DNA of 64,000 bases from Clostridia bacterium (lineage in GTDB: Bacteria; Bacillota; Clostridia; Christensenellales; CAG-138): contig JAFSLH010000013.1 of assembly GCA_017448545.1 (NCBI GenBank), forward strand, positions 16,723 to 80,722. The letters run 5' to 3'. Below the pieces are notes generated by a model that was not told where the DNA came from, ran no database searches, and saw only the letters and a program-made list of their open reading frames with translations. Positions 1 through 20,960 of the stretch are shown here, piece after piece. Position numbers and translations under genes: made by a program. Each line of letters begins with the position of its first letter. Positions within the stretch are counted from its first letter, which is position 1.

Positions 1-3000
1 CGTCCAGCGTCGCCGTATCGGTCACGTCGATCTTGCCCGTACCATGCGCGATCATCGTCACTTCCGAACCGTTCTGCACCTTCAGCGTGTCTGTCTGAAT
101 GCTGCCGTTCTGCAGCGCAGCGGTAAGGCTGCCGTTGCTGATGGTCCAGGTCTCGCCGGTAAAGTCGCCCTTGCCGATCGTGACCGTTTCCGTGCCGGTT
201 GCATTCAGCGTCGTGATCTCCACGTCGCCCGTCTGTACGGTGACGTCGAGCTTGTCGCTGACCGTCCAGGTCTCGCCGGATACGTCGCCCGTTCCGATGA
301 CAATCTTGTCCTTGCCTGTACTGGTCAGGGTCGTGACGTCCATGTCGCCGGTCGTGATGGCGATATCCAGCTTGCCGCCGGTCTTGGTCCACGTTTCACC
401 GGTCAGGCCGCCGTTGGCGATCCGTACAATGACGTCGCCGCTGCCGACGAGCGTCGGGATCGTCACGTCGTGATCGGCTTTCATGGTCACCTCGCCGTTC
501 AGCGTGGTGGTGCCGGTCAGTTCGATGTTGCCTTCCGTTTCGGCCGTTCCGTGTGCCGTCAGCGTAACGTCCGCGCCGCTCTGAACCGTCAGGTCCTTCG
601 CGTAGATATTGCCCTTCTGGACGATGATGTCAACGACAGAACCGTCGAGAATGAGCGTGCTCGGGCGGAACTCGTAATCGCCGGCGCCGGCTCTTACGTT
701 CTGGTACTGTTCGCCGCTGATGACATACGCGCCGTTGCGGTTGCGGGAAACGATCTGTCCGCCTTCACCGAGCTTGTAGTTCAGGTGCACGCTCGTCGTG
801 CCCTTATCCAGCTTGGTGTTGTTGTAGATGGTTTCGTAGATGTTTCCGGTGCTCTTGATGTTCTCGGCGTTCGCATTGCCGTTGATCAGCTTGTACGTGC
901 CGGAACCGAACCAGAGCCAGAGCTCGTCGGAGGTGCTTTCCACGGTACGGATCTCGAACCGGAACGTCTCGTTCGGCGCCGCTTCGCCGGTCAGCCGCTT
1001 GACCGAAATGGTCTTCGGCCCGGAGAAGTGCTTCTGGAACGTGCCATCCTCATAGATGGTGAACATTCTGGTGCCGTTCTGATACGTCTCGTAGTATCCG
1101 TTTCCGATCTTCAATACGGTTCTGCCGCCGTAGCTGACAGTGCCGTTCGAATAGGAAGCTTCCACCCAACTGCCGTTGTTCAGGTAGTAGTACTTGCCGG
1201 CGGCGGTGCGCGCCACGGAGCCGGTCAGCGCTTCGAGACGAAGCTTGCTGTTGTTCAGCTCTGCCGCGCCGTTGCGGTAACGTACGGTTGCGCCGTTAGC
1301 AGTGAACGCATGCACGTTGGTCACCGGGTTGGACGAGAAGGTCTCGCTGCCATACTTTTTGGTAACCGTGCCGTCGTTCGATACCTTCAGGGTGTCGGTA
1401 ACGGTATACGCGCCGTTGTGGTACGTAAGACGGACCGTTTTGTCGCGGAACGTGTTCCGCTCCTGCGTCGTGCCGTCCTCCAGCGTAACCGTCGTCGTAT
1501 CGGCGATTGCGGCGATATCCACCCAGCCGCCGAAAATAGTTCCGGTTTCATTGCCTTCGGAATCCAGCTCCATATCCTCGGAAACATCGAAATGCTCGGT
1601 GCCGACGATTAAGAACGGGGAACGTCCGGTGGTGAACCGGTAGCTGTTGTTGATGAAGTAGCAGAAGACTCTCTCGTAGATGTCGTTGCCTTCTTCATCC
1701 TGACCGACGTTCATGCTGTAGTAGCTGTACTGTGCGCGAACGCCGCCGTCGCTGGTAACCGCTTCGCCTTCCTGTTCAAAGATCCCGAGGAGCTTTTCGC
1801 CTTCCTCCGCTTCCTTGATAACCAGGCCATAACGCGAGGTCGAGATGGAAATCGCGTTGCCGTTGGCGTCCTTATACGGTTTGCCTTCGGAATCCACGAT
1901 CGCGTTGCCGTCCTTATCCACCGCGGGGTTGCCATTGGCGTCGAAGGACGGAACCGTCACGTTGTACGTCTCGGTCACGAAGCCGAACACGCCGAGGAAC
2001 TCGATACCGTCGTACGTGGCGAGAACCATATCCTTCTTATTGCCGAAGGCATAGAAGACGATGTGATCCGCCGCCTGCGCCGCCGTCTGCGAACCCTTCA
2101 GACCGCTTCTGTTGATCGCCGCCTGAACGAGCGAGTTGTTCAGGAGCAGGCTGCGTGTGTTAACATACGACCGGGTCGCTACGTTCCAAACGCCGTCGCT
2201 GCTGCTGAGGATCAGGCTGTCGTCCAGCGTGGACGGGTTCCAGCCGCCCTCGTTGACTTCGGTGTCGAAGCCTTCCACGTATACGACTTTTCCGCCAACG
2301 GTAGCAATGTATCCGTTTGAGTACTCGAGGTAGATCGAATACGAACCGGAGTAGCCGGCCTCAACGGTCAGATCGCCCGTACGGTAGTTCAGCGTGACGT
2401 AGTGCGTATTGCCATCCTCGTCGATCTGAGAATCCAGCACGATCAGGTTCGTGTTGCCCGGAACCGTCTCATACGGAGCCCAGCCGCCGATTGCGGTCAG
2501 CTTGCCATTCTCCACGGTGAGAACCGTGCCGTCCGGCAGCTCGTAGGTCTTTCTGCCTTCTTCGTCTTCCGTCAGGTACTTCTCCAGATCAGCCGCGCTG
2601 ATCGTGGCGGTACCGTTCACGGTGTTCGTGAGGAACAGAACCGAGAAGTTCACGCTCTCCACCGTGGTGCCGGAAGCGTTCGGCAGGTAGTTCAGTGCGA
2701 TATCCTGCCCGAAGGCAATATCCAGCAGTCCGCCGGCAATAACGTTGTTCAGAACAACCGTGCCGTCCACCGGACCGCTTGCCGCGCCGAGAGAGTTCGT
2801 GCGCGTGACCTTCGCCATGACCGGCTCGAAGTAGACGCTGCCCTTTGCGTTGATGTTCACAACCGGGTCTGCGCTGCCGAGTCTGGTCAGCAGGATCTGG
2901 AAGTAGGTATTCAGCTCCTGCTCGGCGTCTTTGGTTCCTTCCTCGTCCGCCGGATAGGTGTTCAGGGTGGAACCGATGTTGTTTACATTGTCGATCGTGA

Positions 3001-6000
3001 GGTTGTGCGTCCAGACCGGAGCATGCGTGATGCCGTCGTTCTCGATGCGCGTCCCGCCGATCAGGTTGCCTGCCTCGCCAACCCAGCGAATGTTCATATC
3101 GCCGTTTTCGTTTGCGACCACGTTGCCGAACTGAATATCGCCGCCGTTGTAGGACGTGATATTGATCGTGTACGTCGGATTGCTGACGCCGTCCGCGTGC
3201 ATATCAATGCTCGGAAGCACCGTGATGCCTTCGAAGTAGTTGGTCAGATCCAGGATGTAGTTGCTGCTCGTGACAGTTCTCGCATTGCCCTTGTTGCTGA
3301 CAGAGCCGCCGGTTGCCGGACGGATCCGACCGGAAACGGTGGTCTTGCCCGCAGACTGGCTTGCATAGACATTGCCGCCGGAAGAACCGGCTACCCAAAC
3401 GTTGCCGAGCACGTCGATCTCTACCCGAATGGGCAACGCCGCGCCGGAAACGTCGAAGGAACTGCTGCTGTCAATGGACACAGTACCCGCCGGCAGACCG
3501 ATGTTGTTGCCGCCGTGGTATTTTTTCTTGACAAACACACCCTTGCGCTTGGCGTCCTTATCGTAGGAAACCCGTCCGCCGAACCCGTAAGAGTTCAGGT
3601 TGAACGAATTGCCCTTGAAGCGGGTGTTGGTCACATTGACGGCCGTATTCAGCGAGCCGTCCAGGTTTGCCGTTGCCTCTACCTTGCCGGCGAGGCCCTT
3701 CAGTTCGGACATCGCATAGACGCGCACGTTCGTGCCGCCGTTGGTGGGCGACGCGCTGCTCCAGATGTTCGCCGTGGAGTACGCCTGCACATCGGAATTG
3801 CTGATGTCTACGCGCGTCGTGAGGTTCAGCGTCAAGTTGCTCGTCGCATACGCCGCGCCGCCTGCGCCCTTGATCTTCGCGATGCTCTCGTCGTTCAGGT
3901 ACAGCTCCTTCACGCCGCCGAAAATGTTCACATAACTGCCGCGCACAAACGCGCCGTTCAGGTTCACCTTGCCGGACAATGTGATGTTCTGCTCGTACGC
4001 ATAAGCTGACGGAGAACCGATCAGACCTGCGGCGGAATAATCGCCGATGGTGGTTACGTTGCCTTCCGCCACGTTTGCGTTCAAATTGATCGTACCGAAA
4101 TCGGCGTAGATCGAACCGCCCGTAACGTTGAGGTTGACGCTGTTGCTGACGGACGTTCTCGCGTCCGCACCGCCGAGACCCGCAAGACCCTTGGCGCTGC
4201 CGTCTGCGCGCGTCGTGATGGAATCGTACCGACCACCCTCCGCCACCGCGTTGACGTTATAGTAACGGGACTTCACGGTTGCGCCGTTCAGAACCGAAAG
4301 TGTAACGTTGCGCGTAAGCTGCGAGATTGCACCGAGTGCGCCGGACGCGAACAGCCCGCCGGAGTTGGCGTTCGTGCGCGAATAGATGTTCGCGTTGTTG
4401 GAAAGGGCGTAGAGGGTGACCGTGCCGTAACCGATGACGTTTGCGTTGTTGTAAACCGCCACGTTCACGGTTTCGGTTACGTAGTTCCGCGCCTTCTTTG
4501 CGTCCGCACTGCCGAGCACGCCGACGCTGTTACCGCTGACCTGCGCGCTGGACTTCGGCTTCTCCTCTGCGCGGATCGTAACCGAGCCCTTGGTGCTTTC
4601 CACGTGTGCGCCGGAGCCGACGTATGCTTCCGTACGGTAGCTGCTGCTGGTCGTTACGTGGTTGGAACCGCCGGCGACGAGAGCTACCTTGAGACCCTGC
4701 GTCATGTTCGCAGTGACGTTGCCGATGTTCGTCGCGATCGCGTTGATGTTGCCGCCCGCATATACGCGCGCTCTGTCCTTAAAGAACGTGCGAACCGTCT
4801 GCGGTGTGCCGATGCCGACGCGCGCTTCAATGCTGCCGCCGCCGAAGCTTGCGAGCGAAACGCTGGTGCTGGATGCGCACTCCGTATAGGAGGTCGTATC
4901 GCTGTATGCGTTCACGTCCACAGAACCGGTGGTGTTCAGCGTAAAGGCGTTGCCGGTGCCGATGCCAGCCTCGGTCGTATCGCCCGTGTCGCTCTGGGCA
5001 AAGACGCCCTGTGCGCTGGCGACGCTGATCGAAACCGGCTTCAATGCGACTGCGTTCGCAATCGTCTTGGTATTCGCCGCAACGACGACGTTGTTCACGT
5101 TGATCGTTCCGCCGTTGCCCGCGAGGTACGCGCGGTTGACCGCCTTCGAGGTTGCATAGGCCATATCCAGCGCGCCGGAGAATGCCGAAACGGAGACGCC
5201 GCTCTTTCTGCCGACCTGCGAATCCGCTTTTCCTTCTTCGAGCGTGGAACGAACCGTGATGTTGCCTCGCACGTTCACGTTGCCGCCGATATCGGTGTAC
5301 GCGTACTGCTCGGCGTTCTGTTCCGCCGTCAGGCGGTTCGTCACAAGCGACAGACCGGAGAAGGAAGCGACGGGCGTTTCCACTCTCGTCCACGCCAGCG
5401 ACTTGCCGACGGTGATGACGTCGATGTTGCCGGAGATTTCCGCGCCGCCCTTGCCCTTCACATAGGAGCCTGCACGAGACTGCGTGTAGGACTTCGCTAC
5501 GTTCACGTCCGCAGCGGCAAGACTTGCCGCAACGCCCAGCGAACCGGTCGTCGCGTCCGACTTGGACTGGAACGCGGTGGCGACGTAGATGTTCTTCGCC
5601 TTCAAGGAAGCGTTCGTGTTGTTACCGCTGTCAACACCTGCTTCATAGGTGCCCTTCGCCGAAGCCTTCAGCACCGCAACGTTGGCGTTCACCGCACCCA
5701 GGCTGACCGCCGGCGCGTTGATGCCCGCCTTCGCATACGAAGTGGCGTAGGTGTTGATGTAGAGGTTGCCGGAAAGGTCCGTGGAGAGATCGCCCACGAG
5801 CGCCTTGACCGTAGAGCTGCCGTACGCAAATGCGAGGTTCGCTCTGACGTTTGCCAGACCCGCGCTGACGAGCGATGCACCGACCTTCGCGATTGCACCC
5901 TTGCTTTCGTCCATCGAAGGAATGGACGGATTGGCGTTCGCACTGCCGCCGCTGACGTTGTAGAGCGAGAGCACCTTCACGTCTCTTGCGGTGATGTTGA

Positions 6001-12000: not shown

Positions 12001-15000
12001 AAGCTTCCGCGTTCAGCGATTCCGCCGCAACCGGCGCCAGAATGTTGACCAGCACCTTGTGCTTGGTGATGTTCAGACCGACCGCAGCCGCAACCTGGAA
12101 CTTGGATTCTACGGTGCTGTCTGCGTTTCCGGTCGCCGCATCGGCGCCCTGTGTTACGGATTCTTCCGCAGTGCCTTCGTCCGCCTTGTCTGCCGCGCCC
12201 TTGGTGGAGGTCTGCGAGACGCCCTGCGTGCGGAGTACGTTGGAGGAGAGCGGTGCGTTAGCGGACGTGTCATCGGCTTTCCCGCTGTCGGGCTTGTCGG
12301 TGTTCGTCTGCTCGCTGTCGGACTGCTCCTTCTTTTCGCCTTCGAGCTTTTCGTCCAGCTTCTGGGCGGTAGAGGTCTTCGGCTTGTTGTTGCTGTTCGA
12401 ATCGAAGTACTCGCCATTGGTCAGCTTGTTCGCGGTTTCTTCGGTGGCTTTCACGCCGCCCGCAAGCTTGTTCAGGTAACGGTCCATGTCCGCGCCCATC
12501 GCCGTCGCGATCGCTTCGCTGCGATCCTCGCTCTCGTTGGAAGCGGCGAAGGAAGCCGCGCCGCCCGCGTTCAGGGGGCTGCCCATGTTGACTTGTACGT
12601 CGGAATCAATGATGTTCACCGTGACGCACGCGCCGACCGCCGTCTTCTTGCCGGCTGCGAACGCGCTTGCCTTGGTCAGGGTCTTCACCGACTGCGCAGC
12701 CGCAAGGTTGAAGCTTACGAACTCCGTATCGGGATCCTCTTCGTCCAAAGCGACGGTGTTTTCCTCGCCCGTTACGATGCTGCCGCCGTTGCCGACCGAA
12801 GCGACGACTTCGTCGTCGGTCACGGTGACCGCAGCGCTCGCGTCGATCGCGATCTTCTTGTCGGTCTTGGTGTTCTCGCCGCCCGTAGACGTCTCGATCG
12901 GATCGGTGCCCGCTGTGGCAGCGGTCTGGACCACATGCTCGCTCAAAGCGCGGATATCGACTGCGCCGGCTTCGACCATGCGGTTGTCGCCGATCGAAGC
13001 TCTCACAACGAGATCGCTGAGGCTCATTGCAAAGCCTGCGCCCACGCCGATGGAGTTGCCGGACTCGGTCTTGGCTTTTTCGTCTCCTTCCTCACCGTCT
13101 TCGAACACGGGCGTCAGCGTCGCGTTCGCGGCAGGCATATAGAACAGGTATGCCACGCCGTCTTCGTCCATCATGGACGGATCCTTGGTGGACAGCGTCT
13201 TGCTGTGCGCGCCCTCGTCGTCGGTGTAGGTCAGGGTCAGGGACTTCAGTCTGCGGCTGACGCCCGGGTTCACATACACAACAACGCGATCCTTCTCGGC
13301 TGCGCGAAGTACCTTGCCTTCGTTAACGGCCTTGAGCTTGACGATCTTGATCTCGTCTTCGCCATTCTCGTAGGTATGCGACCAGGTCTGCGTGTCGTCG
13401 TCCTCGTCTGCATCGGCTTCGCCCATACCGGAAACGGAGAGCGAGTACTTGCCGATGAACTCTGCGGAAACGAGCACTACGTCGCCGTCGATCTCCTTGG
13501 AAAAGCTGCCGACGGTCAGACGGTACTTGTCGTTCTCGCTGTCGTTCGGATCGACCTTCACGAGCTTCAGCGTGAGACCGCCGTTCGGATACGCGATCGA
13601 ACCGCAATCGTCATCGTCCTCGCCCCATGTGATCAGGATGCGTCCGTTCGCAATTTCATAACTGTCGTCCGGATTGACCTTGATCGTGTAGGTTCCTTTT
13701 TCGGAGCCCTTTTCGAGCTTGATTTCGCCCTCGCCTTCCCACGAAGCATCCACGTTGCCGAGCGACACCGTTTCCTTCGTTACGAAGCGCACGGAGTATT
13801 CCAGTTCGCAGTCGTAAGGAACCGTGTAACCGTCGGAACCGATTTCTACGGAGTAGGTATGGGTTTCATCATTGTACTGAATTTCGGGGATCTGGAACGC
13901 TCCGTCCTCGTTCGGCTTCACCGCCAAAGTGACTTTCGTTCCGTCCGCCTTCTTGAACGTGAGGCTTACGTCGCGCAGACGGCGGGAATCATCCGCCTTC
14001 AGCGTGATCTTGTTGCCGTCCCGTTCGGCGGTGCCGCCTTCGCCCACATTCACAACCGCATAGACAAATCCGTTGTCGTCGGCAATCTCCAGCTCGCTTG
14101 CGGGCGTGGGGTCTTCTTTGCCGTTGACGTCTTCATCGTCGCCTGCGCCGAGGTTCGCGTTCGCTTCGTCCGCGTCTTCGGCTTCGGCAGCGGAAGCGGT
14201 GGTTTCTTCGATCTGGTTCGCAATCGCAAGAATCGTCAGCGCGTCGCCCACAGCAATGTCGGCGTCCTCGCCCGGCGTCTCGAGACCGCGGATCTTGGCG
14301 ATCGTTTCGCCGTCGATGATGGAGATTGCTACAGAGCCCGCAACGGATACGCCGTCCGCGCTCGCGCCCGCAATCGCGGTGGTCTTGAAGCGGTGGCCCG
14401 GTTCGTCCGCCGATTCCTCGGTGATCTTCAGACCGAGCGCCTCAGTCGCCACGCCGATCATGCCGTTGGTAAACGCTTTGCCGGCCGCCATCAGGGCGTT
14501 CTTGAGATTGTCAACAATGTGATCTCCGAGCTTCTTTCCGAAGAATTCCTTCACGCTGTCAATGTCCGCAAGACCTTCCGTCATCGCATCCGCAGTGGAA
14601 CGCACGATGGTCTTGAGCTTTACGCGCAGGATCTTCTTCAGATCGTCACGGAACTTCACGTCCGTAATTTCGTCCTCGAACGCATTGACAAAGTCTTCTG
14701 CGCTCAGCGCCAGATTGTCGAACTGGTCAACCGCTTTCTCAATGGCTTCTGGCAGCTTTTCGGCGTCGGTCACAACCGCAGAAATCTTGTCCGCGATCGC
14801 ATCGACGATGTCCGCCTGAAGTTCGTTGAGCAGACCGGTCGCTTCGTTGACGAAGATATCCGTAATCTGATCGGGCAGATTCGCCAGACTCGGGAGTTCG
14901 AAAACCCAGCCGAACTTCTTCTCTACCATTTCCTTTGCCGACGAAATGAGGTTGTCCTTCATGTTGCCGAGGATTTCTTCCCATTTCTCGTCGCTCAGGT

Positions 15001-18000
15001 AAGTGGTAAGAGTCGTTTCAACGGTTTCTACCGTAGATTCGATGCTGCTCTGCAGATTGGTGAAATCTTCCTCGCTGAGGTTCGCTGTTTCGGCTGCCGA
15101 TTCGATCGCGTCCTTCACGATGCCCGCCAGATCATCCGGCAGTGCGGTGAGCGGATTTTCAATCGCTTCGGTGAATGCAGCTTCCAGCCGATTCTGCGCG
15201 TCCTCTACGATTTCCCGAACGATTTCGGAGATTTCCTTATCCTCGAGCACATACTCCTCCAGCAGGCTTGCAAGCTTGCTCGCGGAGATGTTGTCGTTCA
15301 GATAGTTCTGAAGCGTGGACTTCGCTGTGTCCAGAGCGTTATCGTATACGGAGATGAGTTTTGCTTCAACGGCTTCCACGATCCGGTTGCGGAACGCTTT
15401 GCCGCTGACGATGGTGCCGAAGTCGATCGAATGCGTCAGCAGCGCTTCGGCGTTGTTCACCGTGGAGACGATCTTGGAAAGGATCGCGTCAACAACACTT
15501 TCGCGAAGCATATCCAGCGTGCCGGATACTTCGCTCGTGAACATTCCGCTGATCTCGCCCGCAAGCTCGCTCGGGGTAGGAAGCTCTGTCACGCCCTTCA
15601 GCTTGCTCAGCAGCAGGTCGGTCAGAGAATCGGTGATGTTATCGAGGATCTTCCGCTGTATTTCGACCCATGTCTCCGTCTTGAGATAGGTGCGAAGCAC
15701 TCGTTCGATCTCTTTCTCGGCGTCCTTGAGGTCGGAGTCAATGGCTTCCAGCACTTCGGCGATTTCCGCAATGGAAGCTGCCGCGTCGGATGCCGTATCA
15801 CCGAGATTCGACTTCTTCAACGCCTTGGTGAGCGCGTCGATCAACGCGTCCTCAATCGGCTCGGCCAGTTCGCCCGGAACGCTCATCAGAATGGCGACCA
15901 GGTTCGCTAAGTTCTTCTTCGCCTGCTCGTAAGGATTGTTCTGCAGGAGCTCTTCGAAACCGGTTCCCTCCAGAAGGGCGGTCGCGGCTTCGTTGATCGT
16001 TTCGGTCAGGACGGCGGCGATGGCTTCGGAATCGTCCAGTCCGATCGCGCTCGTGACTTTCTGCACAAGAGCAGTCATCGCGTCTTCGATCAGCTTTTCG
16101 AACCAGCTCGCCTCGTCTTCTTCTTCCTCTCCGTCTTCGCCGTCTTCTTCCTTTCCGTCTTCTTCTTCGACTTCCAGGATGCCGGCCTTCACGGTCAGGG
16201 TTTCGCAGACGACTTCGCTCGCAGCGACGATCGCGTCGTTGGTGTAATCCATCACGTTGATCGCAACCGCCACTCCGACGCCCACGTTGCCTGCGCTTGC
16301 GCTGCCGTTCGCAATGACGGTTACGTCGTTGCACGCCAGCGACTCAACAAGCACCGCACCGGGTTCCGGCGCTTCTTCTTCGTCTTCGCCCTCGTCCTCG
16401 TCTTCGGACGCGTCTTCGCCCTCTCCGGGTTCTTCTTCGTCCTCGGACGGTTCTTCCGCTTCTCCTTCCGCTTCTTCGGATGCGACGGCTTCGATCGTTA
16501 CGCCTTCGCCGATTTCGGCGAGCACGTCGTTGCTCTGCACGTTCAGGGCAACCGCTGCCGCAACTGCGATGCCGCCCTCGGAAGTGGAAGCGCTCTTGCT
16601 GTCATTGTTCTTGTCTTTTTCGAGATTCTCGCTCGTCGTGCCGCCGGTCTGAACATGTCCCGCCAGAGAACCTGCTCCGCCGAGAATGCCGTCAACCTGC
16701 TTGTCTACGCCGTCGGAATCTCCGTCACCGTCTCCGTCACCGTCTCCGTCGCCGTCTCCGTCGCCGTCCTCGTCGTCCTTTGCCGGTGCGCCCTTTGCGC
16801 CCGCGCGGGAAACGGAACGGTTACGGTTGAGGGACTTTGCGGTTACGCTCACGGAGTTTGCTTTCGCGCTGCGGTTGAGCTGCGATTTGGCGGAATCGTG
16901 CAGCACGGAGATTCCAAAGGAACCGCCGACGCCGACGCTCTCGCCCGCCGCCTCTGCATCCGCTTCCAGCACGCGATTCAGCTCGGACTTGGCGCGAACG
17001 GAAAGGTCTCCCGCAAGGTCAAGCCCCGCGAAATTCACAGCCGCGCCGATCATTGCTTTCGTTTCGGTGCCGGCAACCATCAGTGCCAGAACCGGCATTA
17101 CGGAAGTGCCGCCTTCAGCGCCGGCGACTGCCTTCGCGTTCTGCGTATCGGTGGTCTCTGCAGCCACGCTGACATTCTGCTGCGCGCTTACGCTGCCTTC
17201 CACCAGAGCGAAGTTTTCAACGCCGTTCACGGAAACCGCGATACCTGCGCCGACGCTGACGGAGTCGTTTCCTTCTTCGTCCTTGTCCTCGCCGTCTTCG
17301 CCTTCACCGTCGTCGTCCTTGCCTTCGCCGTCTTCTTCACCGTCGTCCTCGCCCTTTGCATCCGCAACGGTATTGAACTCGGTTTCGGAAGTCGCTTCGA
17401 TGCTCAAATCGCCGGACAGCGTTGCAACCGCGTCCTTGGCAAGCAGAGAATGATTCTTCACGCTTGCTACCGCCACGGTGACCGCGCCTGCGATCCCCAC
17501 GCTGCTGTCCTTGCTGTAGCCCGCCTTCGACTCCGCATTCACGGTCGTCTTGGCTGCGGCGTTCATTGCAAGGTTCTCCGCCTCGATCACGCCCTTGCGG
17601 AAGTACACGGCGTTCTCAACCGAGGTGTAAGAAACGGTTACGGCAGCGCCGATGCCAACAGAGCTTTCGTCGTCCTTGTTGTCATCGTCCTTGTTGTCAT
17701 CGTCCTTGTTTTCGTCTCCGCCTTCGGGCTTGCCCTCGCCGGATTCGTTGTCCTTGTTATCGCCTTCGGATTCGGAGTCCTTGTTTTCTTCCTCATCCTC
17801 GCCGTCTTCGTTCTCGGCGGACGCGTCGGCCGTGATCTCGATCTCGACCTCGCTCTTTGCGTTCAGCGCAACTTCGCCGCCGGCATTTATCGTTACATCG
17901 TCATCGATTGCAATGCGGTTCGTAACTTCGTGCACGCCCACGGCAAGTGCGCCGGCAAGCTGCACGGAAGACGAGGATTCTTCTTCCTTGTCGTCCCCGT

Positions 18001-20536
18001 CGTTGTCCTTTTGTTCTTCATCCTCGTCATCGGTTCCCGCGAGCGCTTCGTCGAGAAGATCCGCAACGCCGAAGCTGTCTTCATCGTCCGGATCGCCTCC
18101 GGTGAGAATCCAGCCGATCGCGCCGATGACCGCGCCCTTCGTGCCGCCTACCTTTTCGCCGATGTAGCTCAGATCCGAGCCAACCGTTTTCAGCAGGTCG
18201 CCGACCGATGCGCCGTCTTCGTCGTCTTTGTCGTCTTCGTCGTTCGCGTTCTGTTCAGAGGCGTCTCCGTCCCCGGATTGCTCGGTCTCGTCTTCGCCGT
18301 CATCCTCGCCGTCATCCTTCTCCTCCTCGTCGTCCTCGCCGTTCAAGGCCACCGTCACGTTGCCTTTGAGCTCGGATTCGGATTCGATCGTGATGTCGCC
18401 GCCCGCTGTCACGGAAGCGGAATCCTTCAGTGTAACATCGGAATTCTGCTGTACAACGCTGACTGCCGCGTGGACGCCCACCGCGTATCCATCTTCGTCT
18501 TTTTCGTCGTCCTTGTCGTCACCTTCACCGTCTTCGGGCTTGTTCTCGCCTTCGCCGTCTTCGGGCTTGTTTTCGCCTTCGCCGCCTTCGGGTTTGTTCT
18601 CACCCTCGCCGCCTTCGGGTTTGTTCTCACCGTCACCGCCTTCAGGCTGTCCGTCTTCGGGCTTGTTTTCGCCTTCGCCGCCTTCGGGCTTGTCTTCGCC
18701 GTCCGGCTTGTCATCAGGCTTGTCTTCGCCGTCTTCTTCCTCGTCCTCGTCGCCGTCGCTCTTGCCCGCCTTGGCGGTCGTCTCCGTAGACGCAGCGCTC
18801 TTGATTTCAACGCTGCCGTCTTCCGCTTCCACAACGCTCGCGCCCTGAACCAGAACGTGCGCGTCGTTGACGCCGACCGTCACGGATACCGATCCGGGAA
18901 TTTTCCCGTCGGCGGACTCCGCGCTCATGTTGACTTTGGATTCGGCATTCAGACGAATATCGCCCGTATGCGAAACGATGCTGCCGTCCTTCAATTCCAC
19001 GCCGGCTTCGGTTACCGTTACAACGAACGCCGCCGGGATGTACAGACCCGCAACGCTTTCGTTCGATGCTTCCAGATTCGCTGCAACCTTCGCGATCAAC
19101 TCGACGTCGCCTTCGGCAACGATGGATCCCAAAACGTTGATGTGCGCGTCCGCGACCACGACTCTGTAGAAGTTGACGCCTTCGTTTTCGTCCTCGTCTT
19201 CTTCCTTGTCCTCGTCGTCCTCGTCCCCGTCGTCTCCGTCTTCGTTTCCGTCTTCGCCGTCCTCGGCGTCTTCGTCCTCGCCCTCGTCGTCAGCTTCTTC
19301 GTCCCCGTCTTCTTCGTCAATGCTCGCGGCGACTTCAACGGTGATCGCAACGCTGCCAAGCGCTTCAATCTCCGTATCCTCCGCAATTGTGACGGAAGCG
19401 TCAGAGAACTGCAGATTCCCCGAATCGGACGCCTCGTCGTCGGATGCGTTCACGGTCAAAGAATTCAGCTTGAAGGTTCCCTCCAATGTGATTTCTGTGC
19501 CGCTGACCTCCATATCAAGGTCGTCCGCATCCACGAATCCGACTACGGTGTCTTCACCGGAGCCGAGATCAATTTTGGCGTTTCGTTCTTCGGAGTCTTC
19601 TTCCTGTTCGGCAAGTACCGTAACCGTATCGTCTCCGTCGCCGGTTTGAATTTCGGCTGAACTGTTTTCACCAAGCTGCACGGCAATGTTGTCGTCCTCT
19701 TCCGTGCCGTAAACGGTCACGGCAGAATTCTTCGCTTTCACGAGTCCGACGTATAAGCCCATGAGCGTTACGTTCAGGTCTTCGATCGAAATAATATCGA
19801 TCACTACGTCGTCGACGTCGTCGTCCATGCTCTCGGTTGCTCCCTGCGCGCGAATGGTCAGGCTGAAGTTTTCACTCAGCGTGACGCCTTCTGCGAGCAT
19901 AGTGGTGTCGATGCGAATTTCACCTTCGTAGGTGCCCGTCTCCAAGACGATCTCCGCATGCTCTGACTCGTCGGTCAGACTTCTCATTTTTTCGTCAACT
20001 CTGGCTTGAATCAGATTTGACGTTGGTCCAAGCGGGTCTTCCGGGTTCTGTTGGCCGTTGTTTTCGCCTCCGTCTCCCGAACCTTCCGCGTCCTGCTGAT
20101 TCCCTGCATCCTGACCTCCATTGCCGCTGTTTTGGAGCATCGGAGCAGAGCGCAACAGATTGGTATCATCGGTCGTCCCGTTCGGATCGCCGGAGCCGGC
20201 GCCCGCTTCACCCGGCAAAGTTGGGCTTTGCCCCGGGGGATTCGGGTCGCTTTCGTCCGGGTTTCCCGACTCGCCTGCCGGACCGGCCTCAGCCGGATCC
20301 GACTCGCCTGCCGGACCGGCCTCAGCCGGATCCGACACGCCGGGTTGATTGCTGTCCGATTGCGACGACGGCATTCCCGTCGGGTCTTCCGAAACAACCG
20401 ATGATTGCGTATCATCGGCGTATGCCGCAGGCGCGAATACAAGCGCCAGCAGGACGCATAGCGCAAGCGCTATCATCCATGGCAGCCGCAATCGCCGCGG
20501 TTTACGCGATGAACGCTGGGTCGTTGGTTTGTTCAA
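1..20536 (-). CDS. giant secreted beta-strand-repeat adhesin-like protein (3' end outside window)
   Basis: One open frame runs from a TTG at 20536 (after AAGGAGG, 9 bases of spacing) to the window edge: at least 6,845 residues. I translated long stretches along it and found no stop in that phase. Residues 1-40 are a basic, hydrophobic signal peptide ending in AYA. Next come a P/E/S/G-rich segment, two RTX-like motifs near residue 295 (GDGDDTV, GSGEDTV), acidic linkers, a helical insert (about residues 1475-2035), two surface-type repeats with FYMPAAN near residue 2467, then thousands of residues of V/G/T/N/A beta-strand repeats of the GVGV type. The last 700 residues are richer in Y, W and N. 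Cysteine is rare. This fits a right-handed beta-helix adhesin of the large filamentous or leukotoxin-A-like class; partner, anchor and function cannot be seen. An ATG at codon 21 is a less likely start because it would truncate the signal peptide. Confidence 0.88.
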   Translation of the reverse strand, partial: MNKPTTQRSSRKPRRLRLPWMIALALCVLLALVFAPAAYADDTQSSVVSEDPTGMPSSQSDSNQPGVSDPAEAGPAGESDPAEAGPAGESGNPDESDPNPPGQSPTLPGEAGAGSGDPNGTTDDTNLLRSAPMLQNSGNGGQDAGNQQDAEGSGDGGENNGQQNPEDPLGPTSNLIQARVDEKMRSLTDESEHAEIVLETGTYEGEIRIDTTMLAEGVTLSENFSLTIRAQGATESMDDDVDDVVIDIISIEDLNVTLMGLYVGLVKAKNSAVTVYGTEEDDNIAVQLGENSSAEIQTGDGDDTVTVLAEQEEDSEERNAKIDLGSGEDTVVGFVDADDLDMEVSGTEITLEGTFKLNSLTVNASDDEASDSGNLQFSDASVTIAEDTEIEALGSVAITVEVAASIDEEDGDEEADDEGEDEDAEDGEDGNEDGDDGDEDDEDKEEDEDENEGVNFYRVVVADAHINVLGSIVAEGDVELIAKVAANLEASNESVAGLYIPAAFVVTVTEAGVELKDGSIVSHTGDIRLNAESKVNMSAESADGKIPGSVSVTVGVNDAHVLVQGASVVEAEDGSVEIKSAASTETTAKAGKSDGDEDEEEDGEDKPDDKPDGEDKPEGGEGENKPEDGQPEGGDGENKPEGGEGENKPEGGEGENKPEDGEGENKPEDGEGDDKDDEKDEDGYAVGVHAAVSVVQQNSDVTLKDSASVTAGGDITIESESELKGNVTVALNGEDDEEEKDDGEDDGEDETEQSGDGDASEQNANDEDDKDDEDGASVGDLLKTVGSDLSYIGEKVGGTKGAVIGAIGWILTGGDPDDEDSFGVADLLDEALAGTDDEDEEQKDNDGDDKEEESSSSVQLAGALAVGVHEVTNRIAIDDDVTINAGGEVALNAKSEVEIEITADASAENEDGEDEEENKDSESEGDNKDNESGEGKPEGGDENKDDDNKDDDNKDDESSVGIGAAVTVSYTSVENAVYFRKGVIEAENLAMNAAAKTTVNAESKAGYSKDSSVGIAGAVTVAVASVKNHSLLAKDAVATLSGDLSIEATSETEFNTVADAKGEDDGEEDGEGKDDDGEGEDGEDKDEEGNDSVSVGAGIAVSVNGVENFALVEGSVSAQQNVSVAAETTDTQNAKAVAGAEGGTSVMPVLALMVAGTETKAMIGAAVNFAGLDLAGDLSVRAKSELNRVLEADAEAAGESVGVGGSFGISVLHDSAKSQLNRSAKANSVSVTAKSLNRNRSVSRAGAKGAPAKDDEDGDGDGDGDGDGDGDGDSDGVDKQVDGILGGAGSLAGHVQTGGTTSENLEKDKNNDSKSASTSEGGIAVAAAVALNVQSNDVLAEIGEGVTIEAVASEEAEGEAEEPSEDEEEPGEGEDASEDEDEGEDEEEAPEPGAVLVESLACNDVTVIANGSASAGNVGVGVAVAINVMDYTNDAIVAASEVVCETLTVKAGILEVEEEDGKEEDGEDGEEEEDEASWFEKLIEDAMTALVQKVTSAIGLDDSEAIAAVLTETINEAATALLEGTGFEELLQNNPYEQAKKNLANLVAILMSVPGELAEPIEDALIDALTKALKKSNLGDTASDAAASIAEIAEVLEAIDSDLKDAEKEIERVLRTYLKTETWVEIQRKILDNITDSLTDLLLSKLKGVTELPTPSELAGEISGMFTSEVSGTLDMLRESVVDAILSKIVSTVNNAEALLTHSIDFGTIVSGKAFRNRIVEAVEAKLISVYDNALDTAKSTLQNYLNDNISASKLASLLEEYVLEDKEISEIVREIVEDAQNRLEAAFTEAIENPLTALPDDLAGIVKDAIESAAETANLSEEDFTNLQSSIESTVETVETTLTTYLSDEKWEEILGNMKDNLISSAKEMVEKKFGWVFELPSLANLPDQITDIFVNEATGLLNELQADIVDAIADKISAVVTDAEKLPEAIEKAVDQFDNLALSAEDFVNAFEDEITDVKFRDDLKKILRVKLKTIVRSTADAMTEGLADIDSVKEFFGKKLGDHIVDNLKNALMAAGKAFTNGMIGVATEALGLKITEESADEPGHRFKTTAIAGASADGVSVAGSVAISIIDGETIAKIRGLETPGEDADIAVGDALTILAIANQIEETTASAAEAEDADEANANLGAGDDEDVNGKEDPTPASELEIADDNGFVYAVVNVGEGGTAERDGNKITLKADDSRRLRDVSLTFKKADGTKVTLAVKPNEDGAFQIPEIQYNDETHTYSVEIGSDGYTVPYDCELEYSVRFVTKETVSLGNVDASWEGEGEIKLEKGSEKGTYTIKVNPDDSYEIANGRILITWGEDDDDCGSIAYPNGGLTLKLVKVDPNDSENDKYRLTVGSFSKEIDGDVVLVSAEFIGKYSLSVSGMGEADADEDDDTQTWSHTYENGEDEIKIVKLKAVNEGKVLRAAEKDRVVVYVNPGVSRRLKSLTLTYTDDEGAHSKTLSTKDPSMMDEDGVAYLFYMPAANATLTPVFEDGEEGDEKAKTESGNSIGVGAGFAMSLSDLVVRASIGDNRMVEAGAVDIRALSEHVVQTAATAGTDPIETSTGGENTKTDKKIAIDASAAVTVTDDEVVASVGNGGSIVTGEENTVALDEEDPDTEFVSFNLAAAQSVKTLTKASAFAAGKKTAVGACVTVNIIDSDVQVNMGSPLNAGGAASFAASNESEDRSEAIATAMGADMDRYLNKLAGGVKATEETANKLTNGEYFDSNSNNKPKTSTAQKLDEKLEGEKKEQSDSEQTNTDKPDSGKADDTSANAPLSSNVLRTQGVSQTSTKGAADKADEGTAEESVTQGADAATGNADSTVESKFQVAAAVGLNITKHKVLVNILAPVAAESLNAEASNTSNFLTKGSGFAISVAKKSNSIAAAVSVSVDKNESVVVIADNFEATDGDVNASANMAQNTTGEYRGLLAAQSLAGGVSGADGTVSIAGSIVVVTDKAVTAVRINERGAQGVTVSGNEIHVTSLDRSRIGVRAGGVSASKGSSVGVGAAFALVYARSLVETLIGNNTEIYGTALEVSAEKARISFSDFESAIGLTTFTTDTSDLPDDQKEDADKGIVNLDKNDDGVYEIEIGASSEDVVGLVDALNVLSSVNYYMEAIAGSIMGSGKQGGSTASVPGSIALLLFKNTVKASLGDNVTVVLQSEDDAEGDMTLAAIDDANIRVLAGSVNVAPSKAGVGITVAWLDNRDTVEASIGSNSDVTVSNGSFHQSAEADFDTMLVTVAASIATGSRSKANIGGAVNVISAFNAAKSYIGRNTSVISDGDLNVATTAKEDNLLISMSASGGKSKVAVGRTVAVVVNKATAKTIVDNGATLRSENGSMTLESEANENGVNVLASASAAPSSKVGVAATIGVMVSKTITSTQIGDNVKLYAKKDVTLSSKGDANLIEAAASFSFGGKSVSVGATILVNVLKREAGVTLGNNVTVTAEEGNILLDSSGKDYNVIVGLAAAASPDGNGVSGTIPAVVSKTKIRTVAGNNLTATAGDSVGILSDLENELYVVAGGVTISLGKLGIGATVGTLVLNYIVESMVGQNATIKANVKSGGTGIDSSSNRSRRRRGVIVGAHGNETVVGAGVAAGVGKNVGIGGTIMTLIISGTVRTEIGDNADVTAGSESGTGEEGDFSDDAEDHSFVFGFAGAIAASAKTGVGATVETVVFSKTVEARVGNAKKIFVTGTVSVRADDVSDLYVLALGFAASANPAVAGDVNVLVYKDNVHAVIGGTVIASKGIEVFASSDNDLYDIAAGVSVAGSPSVAAVALVTYFQGSTVAEVLSGAVLTAMNGDITVQAKSDEFVTADAAGIAASAKTGISGTADVIVTSLSTKAYTGANVSMLAFAGSVKVQSMDTFTLLGMAVTAAAGASAGVGVAALVIVAMNGVFAAFGDNNSIVAKNDVLVDADSSRAIDTYVVSAGVGSTGIAPSVAVVVAGGNLPQDAADALASGNIVPGAQVNHAFEQSHYLDAHKPSTVSGNGFMDELATDGQKAQNMQPNSSANGASGWNAYGQDTGSDFGAGAASMNTSTAENASESTKDNDSDPTAGLGSDTSVSGLSWNNGKSNKSDSAQASIGQGTVVTAERGSISVLANDKLVSDLIAGAIGASGTGIGVGVALAVLKSNITAEVGTGAVLTAGGAVNVKASTGSDTRSNASDPFKAGSDASKNRYSVLAKLDETGITGASGGTVRVISISGGVGGTAIAAAVGVLLVFSEVNALMDGSVTKARAVNVEGVMDFGQVLTVTLGFGAGGTGIAASVGMAYFEGKVITAIGPNAVIGTNSSNVGSVNVKTNGVTKAISVATTLAAGGVGVAAGVALTFNKTNISTTIRRGAVIHAKNGAVSVTTDFNTEAKAYVIARSFGSVAVGATVAVVSNSLTASTYIGYDPFGSVSGTAGTVSAKTIDVKNNIHGQATVLGTGISGGLVAVNGIVALNLNLVKTAAAITGMSINNGGEGIRADRVFVDSVVFGDSILNLTAIAGGSVAVGATVGIAKVGAISRNIVSVDGCRMDINTLTIGNGTVSSKALLTLIAGTGGGVAVAVNIGIALNNAEFTSKLGGTAGGILNAGTVNITMNGNAYSTVAMGTASFGGVSVGAAVGIALLTATMQVMVDSAAELNIDNLNVSCTQNMTDPGFRYDLYLGDKVGTVSITFNKMAQVFMLNARAGAIGVGVDVIVAIANATCRAVVSAANLTINNAINVTSNARTEADGQTISISVSEIGVGAIVIYAYAKGTVESRLTSTGSLNIGGAVNVRTDYSAKVNAVAVPASLGMLASISLNVVMAKVRTVAYAGITGTGAIVAPGRDVNVTANGTAVSNAEIKPGLVTAGLLTVGASFVMSTLEAKQTAEAKGVNITARDVKVLSLYNVSGGSANANPSIPSMDESKGAIAKVGASLVSAGLANVRANLAFAYGSSTVKALVGDLSTDLSGNLYINTYATSYAKAGINAPAVSLGAVNANVAVLKASAKGTYEAGVDSGNNTNASLKAKNIYVATAFQSKSDATTGSLGVAASLAAADVNVAKSYTQSRAGSYVKGKGGAEISGNIDVITVGKSLAWTRVETPVASFSGLSLVTNRLTAEQNAEQYAYTDIGGNVNVRGNITVRSTLEEGKADSQVGRKSGVSVSAFSGALDMAYATSKAVNRAYLAGNGGTINVNNVVVAANTKTIANAVALKPVSISVASAQGVFAQSDTGDTTEAGIGTGNAFTLNTTGSVDVNAYSDTTSYTECASSTSVSLASFGGGSIEARVGIGTPQTVRTFFKDRARVYAGGNINAIATNIGNVTANMTQGLKVALVAGGSNHVTTSSSYRTEAYVGSGAHVESTKGSVTIRAEEKPKSSAQVSGNSVGVLGSADAKKARNYVTETVNVAVYNNANVIGYGTVTLYALSNNANIYSRTNANSGGLFASGALGAISQLTRNVTLSVLNGATVKSRYYNVNAVAEGGRYDSITTRADGSAKGLAGLGGADARTSVSNSVNLNVTGGSIYADFGTINLNANVAEGNVTTIGDYSAAGLIGSPSAYAYEQNITLSGKVNLNGAFVRGSYVNIFGGVKELYLNDESIAKIKGAGGAAYATSNLTLNLTTRVDISNSDVQAYSTANIWSSASPTNGGTNVRVYAMSELKGLAGKVEATANLDGSLNTAVNVTNTRFKGNSFNLNSYGFGGRVSYDKDAKRKGVFVKKKYHGGNNIGLPAGTVSIDSSSSFDVSGAALPIRVEIDVLGNVWVAGSSGGNVYASQSAGKTTVSGRIRPATGGSVSNKGNARTVTSSNYILDLTNYFEGITVLPSIDMHADGVSNPTYTINITSYNGGDIQFGNVVANENGDMNIRWVGEAGNLIGGTRIENDGITHAPVWTHNLTIDNVNNIGSTLNTYPADEEGTKDAEQELNTYFQILLTRLGSADPVVNINAKGSVYFEPVMAKVTRTNSLGAASGPVDGTVVLNNVIAGGLLDIAFGQDIALNYLPNASGTTVESVNFSVLFLTNTVNGTATISAADLEKYLTEDEEGRKTYELPDGTVLTVENGKLTAIGGWAPYETVPGNTNLIVLDSQIDEDGNTHYVTLNYRTGDLTVEAGYSGSYSIYLEYSNGYIATVGGKVVYVEGFDTEVNEGGWNPSTLDDSLILSSSDGVWNVATRSYVNTRSLLLNNSLVQAAINRSGLKGSQTAAQAADHIVFYAFGNKKDMVLATYDGIEFLGVFGFVTETYNVTVPSFDANGNPAVDKDGNAIVDSEGKPYKDANGNAISISTSRYGLVIKEAEEGEKLLGIFEQEGEAVTSDGGVRAQYSYYSMNVGQDEEGNDIYERVFCYFINNSYRFTTGRSPFLIVGTEHFDVSEDMELDSEGNETGTIFGGWVDIAAIADTTTVTLEDGTTQERNTFRDKTVRLTYHNGAYTVTDTLKVSNDGTVTKKYGSETFSSNPVTNVHAFTANGATVRYRNGAAELNNSKLRLEALTGSVARTAAGKYYYLNNGSWVEASYSNGTVSYGGRTVLKIGNGYYETYQNGTRMFTIYEDGTFQKHFSGPKTISVKRLTGEAAPNETFRFEIRTVESTSDELWLWFGSGTYKLINGNANAENIKSTGNIYETIYNNTKLDKGTTSVHLNYKLGEGGQIVSRNRNGAYVISGEQYQNVRAGAGDYEFRPSTLILDGSVVDIIVQKGNIYAKDLTVQSGADVTLTAHGTAETEGNIELTGTTTLNGEVTMKADHDVTIPTLVGSGDVIVRIANGGLTGETWTKTGGKLDIAITTGDMDVTTLTSTGKDKIVIGTGDVSGETWTVSDKLDVTVQTGDVEITTLNATGTETVTIGKGDFTGETWTISNGSLTAALQNGSIQTDTLKVQNGSEVTMIAHGTGKIDVTDTATLD
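14440..16115 (-). other. predicted all-helical insert with internal duplication within the giant adhesin
   Basis: Roughly residues 1475-2035 lack the beta-repeat signature and are instead rich in E, K, A, L, D and I with amphipathic spacing (for example EKLIEDAMTALVQKV). Two units align: TYLKTETWVEI (Trp codon at 15668) and TYLSDEKWEEI (Trp codon at 14981), 229 residues apart. Each is followed by ELP, a (T/N)E(V/A)(S/T)G motif, VDAI and a KI(V/S)S-type segment in the same order. A third, partial unit precedes the first. The boundaries are approximate and no known family was recognised. Confidence 0.7.
16718..16772 (-). repeat. hexanucleotide repeat coding for a (DG)n linker
   Basis: An alternating GTCTCC/GTCACC/GTCGCC tract encodes about seven to eight Asp-Gly pairs in a row. 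It lies about 600 bases before the helical insert and is a candidate slippage site, although hexamer changes keep the frame. Confidence 0.75.
17660..17712 (-). repeat. 15-bp repeats coding for an acidic NKDDD linker
   Basis: Repeats of a TTGTCATCGTCCTTG-type unit encode an Asp/Lys/Asn linker (DDDNKDDDNKDDE). It is one of several acidic spacers in the N-terminal third of the giant protein. Confidence 0.7.
18530..18715 (-). repeat. 27-bp imperfect tandem repeats coding for NKPEGGEGE
   Basis: About six to seven degenerate 27-base units encode an acidic, glycine- and proline-containing linker (NKPEGGEGE and variants) inside the giant protein, between beta-repeat blocks. Such a linker is likely extended and may bind cations; length variation would stay in frame. 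Confidence 0.8.
20268..20333 (-). repeat. 33-bp exact tandem duplication in the adhesin N-terminus
   Basis: Two identical 33-base units (20268-20300, 20301-20333) encode two copies of the 11-residue unit SDPAEAGPAGE just after the signal peptide. The unit keeps the frame, so copy number could vary without loss of function. Confidence 0.85.
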
Positions 20537-20601
20537 AAGCAGCTTCCTCCTTTCCGCACCCGATCGGCAAATATCGTGAACCGCCGAATGCAAATTTGGG
20601 A

Positions 20602-20645: not shown

Positions 20646-20673
20646 ATTATAACGCCTACCCCCCCGATGTCAA
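20646..20673 (-). promoter_or_regulatory. consensus sigma-A promoter of the giant adhesin gene
   Basis: On the minus strand TTGACA (20668-20673) and TATAAT (20646-20651) are separated by 16 bases, a perfect match to both hexamers. The predicted start is near 20639, giving a leader of about 100 bases before the TTG at 20536. It is surprisingly strong for a gene of 20 kb. Confidence 0.85.
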
Positions 20674-20851: not shown

Positions 20852-20960
20852 GTTGTCGAAAAAGGTCCAGACCATTTTCGGCGAGTTTTATAACAATATA
20901 CCAGTAGGAAGGCGTTGTCTCTTTCCAGCTCTTGAAGCTGTTTTGAGACAACGCCTTGTT
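20852..20960. repeat. intergenic fold-back element related to the one at 63782
   Basis: The left part (20852-20888) closely resembles 63786-63820: both read G(T/C)TGTCG(A/C)AAAAGG, CAGACCATTT and CGGC. The right part is a long hairpin with perfect 13-base arms AAGGCGTTGTCTC (20909-20921) and GAGACAACGCCTT (20945-20957) and an inner CAGCT/AGCTG stem. It may also act as a terminator. A matching GTTTTGAGAC stands at the very end of the window. Confidence 0.6.

What the first reader, a model, noticed from the sequence alone, without database searches (positions are those of the whole stretch)
1..20536. At least 6,845-residue secreted protein on the minus strand, hidden by antisense frames
The first third of the window is one open frame with a signal peptide and beta-strand repeats. 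Phase agrees at the TTG start (20534-20536), at Trp codons 15668 and 14981, and at the window edge. The obvious plus-strand frames (for example 4604-9631) are its in-phase mirror. A polypeptide this long is rare among Clostridia.
Basis: partly seen in the sequence, partly recalled or inferred. Interest (0 to 1): 0.7.

Follow-up and report, generated by a model that had tools for sequence, protein, structure and literature searches.

The report
Giant surface protein with TPR partner
A bacterium related to gut bacteria carries one 28,000-base gene for a very long exported protein, and in its relatives this kind of gene nearly always sits beside a gene for a small membrane-tied, helper-like protein, a pairing we did not find described.

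Summary
The minus frame is open across window 1-20536, has host-like codon usage, and runs past the left edge to a stop at contig position 9194: 9,354 residues from a TTG start with a strong ribosome site, a signal peptide and a perfect sigma-70 promoter. The plus-strand frames are its in-phase mirror. Homologous frames (about 6,700-10,300 residues where both ends are seen; 14,000 in one cut frame) occur sparsely in the order, the class and one other class. Their C-termini differ (LPQTG, SLH, others); none is recognised here. Beyond the finding: a gene for a TPR protein with an N-terminal membrane segment lies next to the giant gene in 15 of 15 loci whose flank can be seen (12 upstream, 2 downstream including this one, 1 divergent). 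Of four new genomes found by the TPR profile alone, three held the giant. I read it as a two-gene module: an exported giant, probably a beta-rich surface fibre or adhesin, and an extracytoplasmic TPR partner for its export, folding or tethering. That function is inferred; no structure could be predicted. Giant surface proteins are known; a TPR partner was not found in the searches made.

The parts
1..20536 (-). Giant ORF (in-window part, 6,845 of 9,354 codons); continues left of the window to the stop at G000:C28:9194 (L003:9194). The TPR gene of the module lies outside the window, L003:7686-9113 minus.
   Evidence: codon usage; homologues; TPR gene
20417..20536 (-). Predicted signal peptide, residues 1-40 (basic start, hydrophobic core, ends APAAYA before DDTQ)
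   Evidence: hydropathy; cleavage site read by eye
20546..20553 (-). AAAGGAGG ribosome-binding site, 9 nt before the TTG
   Evidence: sequence
20646..20673 (-). Sigma-70 promoter, TTGACA-16-TATAAT, 12 of 12
   Evidence: 4 promoter-like sites found in 801 bases, 1.3 expected; this one is perfect
19541..20023 (-). Conserved N-terminal domain (residues 172-332), with RTX-like G-x-G-x-D turns
   Evidence: blastp to G211, G090, L036, alignment A6; RTX likeness is by eye, Pfam gave no such hit
16113..19318 (-). Zone of acidic low-complexity tracts (E/D/G-rich) made of short DNA tandem repeats, between other segments
   Evidence: tandem repeats, composition
14396..16108 (-). Insert (about residues 1477-2047) that looks helix-rich
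   Evidence: read by eye from the translation; partly aligned in G090 and L036
8702..13069 (-). Conserved core, residues 2490-3945 (alignment A1)
   Evidence: 28-51% identity to 8 relatives, two of them partial rows
2510..6868 (-). Second conserved block, residues 4557-6009
   Evidence: 31% identity to G211 residues 4667-6175

Best explanation
This is the exported partner of a two-gene module. The giant protein is made from the TTG start and exported by its signal peptide (inferred from sequence). Its several thousand residues of Gly/Ala/Val-rich repeats with acidic linkers probably fold outside into a long beta-rich filament that stands on the cell surface and works as an adhesin or coat fibre (inferred; no structure). 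The adjacent gene makes a TPR protein with one N-terminal membrane segment or signal peptide and its TPR array predicted outside the membrane; it probably binds the emerging giant chain and helps its export, folding or tethering (inferred from adjacency, co-occurrence and partial co-divergence). Some relatives attach the giant by different C-termini (LPQTG, SLH); this copy has none recognised, so here retention by the TPR partner or loose release are both possible.
For: Open frame, start, promoter, signal peptide. Coding strand. Homologous giant frames, stop to stop: G211 8,460, G056 6,372 (5' cut), G090 10,103, G167 10,292, G230 6,676 (3' cut), G281 6,679, G337 7,166, G1143 9,533 and G1169 14,008 (5' cut), largely collinear with this one where compared. 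TPR gene adjacent in 15 of 15 loci with a visible flank: G000, L036, G090, G211, G281, G337, G230, G167, G056, G407, G661, G1104, G1143, G1169, G1173. Seven of these 15 were not in TPR profile A5. In 347 order genomes A5 reaches E 1.4e-42 or better in 8, all giant-bearing; the next is 3e-16. Forward test from the TPR profile alone in 103 family genomes: 4 new hits, 3 with the giant core. Core and TPR distances correlate, Mantel r 0.46, p 0.0002, 12 genomes. The 8 TPR proteins tested, of 15, have one N-terminal hydrophobic segment and none later. Surface anchors: SLH in G167, LPQTG-membrane-RRRK in G1143 (read by eye), a sortase-domain gene before the TPR gene in G337, sortase genes in 11 of 14 giant-bearing genomes including G000.
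Against: No structure, expression or binding data; structure prediction was off. No recognised anchor in G000; Pfam's anchor model did not fire on G1143 either. G291 has broken giant fragments and no TPR hit at E 1e-8; G576's giant fills its short contig and its TPR hit (4.5e-19) is on another contig. G1168 has the TPR gene (at a contig end) but no giant core. In a 301-genome class sample generic TPR proteins reach E 2.5e-19 to 3.0e-29 in seven genomes with no giant found (G396, G429, G480, G521, G554, G651, G653), so for G407 (3.8e-34, matching only the repeat part), G661 and G576 (5.1e-19, 4.5e-19) only adjacency can speak, not score. Seven of the eight strong in-order TPR hits are in the profile by construction. 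Three of 14 giant-bearing genomes show no sortase (G056, G661, G1104). The distance correlation may partly reflect species descent, and G1143/G1169 are close in the core (0.49 identity) but not in the TPR protein (0.27). In G000 and G1173 the TPR gene is downstream, in G661 divergent, and in G407 two frames lie between, so a strict operon order is not conserved.
Confidence: 0.6

Rival explanations
1. An ordinary giant surface adhesin that uses only the general Sec route and a standard anchor; the neighbouring TPR gene is an unrelated hitchhiker kept by linkage.
For: For the giant proteins of A. kunkeei the authors found no transport genes near the cluster (PMC12863079, section 12). Anchors and sortases exist in some relatives.
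Against: TPR adjacency in 15 of 15 visible loci, over eight families of the search listings (f1, f4, f21, f23, f33, f36, f68, f128) and in three arrangements, and retrieval of the giant from the TPR profile alone in 3 of 4 new genomes, are hard to get by linkage alone.
Confidence: 0.25
2. A two-partner-secretion or leukotoxin-like (LktA/FHA) exoprotein.
For: LktA tandem repeat model NF012206 hits at E 1.5e-4 with three stretches; parts of the core profile recur in other classes of the phylum, in frames of about 1,000-7,200 aa.
Against: Score 21.9 against a cut-off of 50; no haemagglutination-activity (TPS) domain in Pfam; no outer-membrane partner among the neighbours that were scanned (not every ORF).
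Confidence: 0.08
3. Several plus-strand genes rather than one minus-strand gene.
For: Long plus ORFs, e.g. 4604-9631.
Against: The five checked are in the mirror phase, codon score -0.27 like the mirrors of host genes, and the fastest-changing position is the plus frame's first.
Confidence: 0.01
4. The giant gene is cargo of a mobile island, kept for the element rather than the cell.
For: Tyrosine recombinase, ParB, MobA/VirD2 relaxase and a type IIG restriction gene within 9 kb on the left, another type IIG system on the right; core absent from the 22 congeners sampled, themselves 62-97% complete; G167 and G1104, of different classes, are similar in both genes.
Against: No element ends were defined. 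No mobility gene was noticed by eye beside most relatives' giants in the ORF lists, but those lists were not family-searched, so absence is not tested.
Confidence: 0.3

Closest known systems
Giant1-5 extracellular proteins of Apilactobacillus kunkeei (PMC12863079; abstract and sections 4 and 12 read)
   Same: Very long (3,000-8,000 aa) signal-peptide extracellular proteins, repetitive, with a distinct N-terminal domain
   Different: There Giant1-3 have alpha-helical repeats, Giant4 beta-sheet domains, Giant5 one long helix, C-termini are SH3b-like, and the authors found no transport genes nearby; here Gly/Ala/Val repeats, varied anchors and a constant TPR neighbour. No sequence comparison between the two was made.
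NCBIfam NF012206 LktA_tand_53 tandem repeat filamentous proteins
   Same: Same style of repeat, weak hits in three stretches
   Different: Below the curated cut-off; no TPS domain found.
Huge bacterial surface proteins surveyed in PMC11573180 (passages read)
   Same: Over 5,000 aa, surface or attachment class
   Different: A survey by length; no such family or TPR partner in the passages seen
Serine-rich repeat proteins with SecA2/SecY2 (as described in PMC12863079)
   Same: Large exported adhesins with dedicated neighbouring genes
   Different: Serine is only 7.7% here; the constant neighbour is TPR. SecA2/SecY2 genes were not searched for in the genome.

Membership tests
Giant exported surface proteins (kind) | Single frame over 5,000 aa with signal peptide | tested here: met
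   9,354 codons; N-terminal hydrophobic segment after basic residues
Giant exported surface proteins (kind) | Recognisable surface anchor at the C-terminus | tested here: not met
   None in G000; SLH in G167, LPQTG tail in G1143 by eye
LktA-type filamentous repeat protein (NF012206) | Score over the curated cut-off | tested here: not met
   21.9 against 50 bits
Two-partner-secretion adhesin (FHA type) | N-terminal TPS (haemagglutination activity) domain | tested here: not met
   Only a sub-threshold RNase_II_C_S1 hit in Pfam
Two-partner-secretion adhesin (FHA type) | FhaC-type outer-membrane partner gene nearby | tested here: inconclusive
   None among the neighbours scanned; not every ORF was scanned, nor the whole genome
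RTX / type I secreted adhesin | Calcium-binding GGxGxD repeats over the Pfam threshold | tested here: not met
   One GGxGxD in the whole protein, no Pfam RTX hit
Sortase-anchored protein | LPXTG-type tail | tested here: not met
   None in the last 120 residues of G000, though G000 has a sortase gene
Giant-TPR module (proposed here) | Adjacent TPR gene with N-terminal membrane segment | tested here: met
   L003:7686-9113 minus, 80 nt after the giant stop; E 2.5e-68 to profile A4, built without it; segment at residues 31-47
Giant-TPR module (proposed here) | Physical interaction of the two products | not testable with these tools
   No experiment; structure prediction was off

The most novel reading that the evidence does not exclude
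Clostridia and some neighbours have a dedicated two-gene system for giant exoproteins, in which an outward-facing membrane TPR protein serves as a specific assembly and export platform for surface filaments of 6,000-14,000 residues: a kind of partnered secretion without an outer-membrane partner, moving between classes as a unit.
Probability: 0.4. Interest if true: 0.75.

Novelty: new variant of a known kind. Interest (0 to 1): 0.6.

Why it matters
How bacteria export and fold single chains of ten thousand residues is open; for the A. kunkeei giants no transport genes were found nearby (PMC12863079, section 12). A small partner with a soluble domain, next door wherever it can be seen, would make the question testable with two clonable pieces. 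It also warns annotators: antisense open frames opposite these genes reach 4,487 codons in G211 and 3,077 in G000, stop to stop, and could be called as false genes.

Tried and rejected
Plus-strand genes: rejected on phase, codon usage and substitution pattern. ATG start at 20875: rejected, the promoter lies downstream of it. Pfam and NCBIfam on the giant: one sub-threshold Pfam hit (RNase_II_C_S1), taken as chance, and one sub-threshold LktA repeat. PDB by sequence: core A1 and N-terminal A6 found nothing convincing (best E 0.58 and 0.22); TPR A5 matched TPR proteins in general. Viral contigs with the core: 56 stretches matched a pattern, no relative. Genome contigs: 25 stretches matched, 1 relative, L036. 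Structure prediction, and so fold search, was not possible. Literature: read as listings; only 60 and 83 carried TPR terms, and neither gave a paper on a TPR partner of giant surface proteins (open-licence PMC papers only, no preprints). A finer rate test within the genus: not possible, none of the 22 congeners has the core. That the host has no outer membrane is presumed, not tested.

Full report
Observation. The minus frame ending at the left window edge has no stop in 6,845 codons. The window is G000:C28:16723-80722; taking the contig's left part extends the frame to a TAA at C28:9194, for 9,354 residues from TTG 20536 or 9,467 from ATG 20875. The TTG is preferred: AAAGGAGG 9 nt before it, a perfect TTGACA-16-TATAAT promoter at 20673-20646 that would sit inside the ATG version, and a signal peptide starting there.

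Coding strand. Codon-position GC of the giant is 0.609/0.440/0.756, like five genes of the window taken as host genes; its codon-usage score is +0.19, the in-phase plus mirror -0.27, and the five host genes score +0.23 to +0.37 with mirrors at -0.10 to -0.33 (the codon table was made from the same five genes, so their own scores are flattered). In 10 of 10 pairs among five aligned core sequences, changes are most frequent at the third and least at the second codon position of the minus frame. All five plus ORFs checked are in the mirror phase. The plus frames are therefore a by-product of codon choice.

Anatomy. Residues 1-40 signal peptide; 172-332 a conserved N-terminal domain with RTX-like turns (by eye); then acidic tandem-repeat tracts between Gly/Ala/Val segments; a helix-looking insert; a conserved core 2490-3945; a second conserved block 4557-6009; a C-terminal third with more repeat-like and helix-looking stretches (translation, blastp, composition). 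The repeat consensus from 75 copies in nine giants is 34 positions long; seven of those copies are in this protein. Net charge is -727 by K+R-D-E, with 15 Cys. Pfam and NCBIfam give only sub-threshold hits. No anchor was found at this C-terminus.

Relatives. The core was found in 1 of 60 relatives, in 8 of 346 other genomes of the order sample, in 3 of 390 others of the class sample and in 9 of 397 others of the phylum sample, of which one (G1104) covers the whole core and eight match parts of it. Open frames, stop to stop: G211 8,460; G056 6,372 (5' cut); G090 10,103; G167 10,292; G230 6,676 (3' cut); G281 6,679; G337 7,166; L036 5,053 (3' cut); G1104 4,864 (3' cut); G1143 9,533; G1169 14,008 (5' cut). 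G291 has only frames of 348 and 406 residues with giant likeness. The one named record is L036, JAFWDW010000160.1, Lachnospiraceae bacterium RGIG5650, sheep duodenum. C-termini vary: SLH in G167, LPQTG plus membrane segment plus RRRK in G1143 (read; Pfam's anchor model did not fire), a similar but degenerate tail in G211, a Mutator transposase domain at the end of G056's frame, nothing recognised in G000, G281 and G337.

The TPR neighbour. Comparing flanks showed a shared gene before the giant in four loci; Pfam calls it TPR. A profile of those four (A4) found it in eight of the nine loci searched, including this one, where it lies downstream of the giant on the same strand, 80 nt past the stop, with a 14-pair hairpin in between; the ninth, G056 C24, is cut at the giant's 5' end. 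The eight-row profile A5 was then tested. In 347 order genomes it reaches E 1.4e-42 or better in 8 genomes, each giant-bearing; the next best is 3e-16; the ninth giant-positive, G291, has no TPR hit at E 1e-8. Of the eight, only G056 was not in the profile; its TPR gene stands directly before a giant N-terminus that runs to a contig end. Outside the order, the gene is next to the giant in G1104 (directly before it), G407 (two frames between, a 7TMR-DISM sensor kinase by Pfam) and G661 (divergent); G576's giant fills its contig. A forward test over the 103 family genomes gave four new TPR hits at E 1e-20: G1143, G1169 and G1173 have the giant core, with a giant piece adjacent to the TPR gene in each; in G1169 and G1173 the core itself lies on other contigs. 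In G1168 the TPR gene is at a contig end and no core was found. Two weak-TPR genomes, G199 and G179, have no core. In sum 15 of 15 loci with a visible flank: 12 upstream same strand, 2 downstream same strand (G000, G1173), 1 divergent (G661). Against: in a 301-genome class sample generic TPR proteins reach E 2.5e-19 to 3.0e-29 in seven genomes in which no giant was found, matching model positions 69 or later; G407's own match (3.8e-34) is likewise limited to the repeat part. So outside the order the score alone does not identify the partner.

Topology and co-divergence. The 8 TPR proteins tested have one hydrophobic segment near the N-terminus and none after residue 90; G281 and G337 look like cleavable signal peptides by eye. 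Core and TPR distances correlate over 12 genomes (Mantel r 0.46, p 0.0002). G281/G337, L036/G090 and G167/G1104 are close in both genes; G1143/G1169 are close in the core only. G167 and G1104 are of different classes, which suggests transfer of the pair, unless the G1104 contig is mis-binned.

Mechanism. Shown by sequence: the gene, its strand, start signals, export signal, family and constant TPR neighbour. Inferred: the beta-rich filament, the surface role, and the TPR protein as extracytoplasmic assembly, export or tethering partner. TPR arrays bind other proteins in many systems (recalled), and the acidic, low-Cys, Gly/Ala/Val-rich build fits an extracellular fibre; neither is proof.

Known context. 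A. kunkeei Giant1-5 are extracellular, 3,000-8,000 aa, and have no transport genes nearby (PMC12863079, abstract, sections 4 and 12). PMC11573180 (passages) counts huge bacterial surface proteins. Searches by giant-protein terms and by TPR terms listed nothing on a TPR partner of giant surface proteins, in an open-licence library without preprints.

Verdict. The finding is real and larger than stated. Giant surface proteins are a known kind; this is a family of them without a matching Pfam or NCBIfam model over cut-off, with an apparently undescribed partner gene.

Noticed in passing
window 21247-24256; L003:2665-5478: Type IIG restriction-modification genes (PADLOC E 2.5e-156 plus a specificity subunit, and E 0) on both sides of the giant gene.
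   Followed up: partly
L003:243-7069: Tyrosine recombinase, ParB and MobA/VirD2 relaxase near the module: a possible mobilizable island; ends not defined.
   Followed up: partly
window 20909-20957: Inverted repeat with 22-nt arms upstream of the giant's promoter, between it and the restriction genes.
   Followed up: no
L109-L111 (G1169:C79:3-42026): A 14,008-residue open frame, open at its 5' contig end; an N-terminal giant piece of 2,681 residues lies on contig C30 beside the TPR gene.
   Followed up: partly
L031-L034 (G281, G337): Homologous genes directly after the giant in both, Peptidase_C11 (clostripain family) by Pfam in G337; a sortase-domain gene before the TPR gene in G337.
   Followed up: partly
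L024:3735-4283 (G090); L083:3317-5919 (G407): A sigma-70-family (ECF-like) factor upstream of the pair in G090, and 7TMR-DISM/histidine-kinase frames between TPR and giant in G407: possible regulators.
   Followed up: partly
L088:10416-12639 (G291); L022 end (G056): Giant fragments in short frames in G291 without a TPR partner; G056's giant frame runs into a Mutator transposase domain.
   Followed up: no
L020-L021 (G211:C19:70736-84199 +): A 4,487-codon open frame (stop to stop) antisense to the giant, in the mirror phase by its coordinates, which could mislead gene callers.
   Followed up: no
L085 (G1104) and L028 (G167): Giant core (0.50 identity) and TPR (0.36) are close between genomes of different classes: transfer of the pair or a mis-binned contig.
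   Followed up: partly
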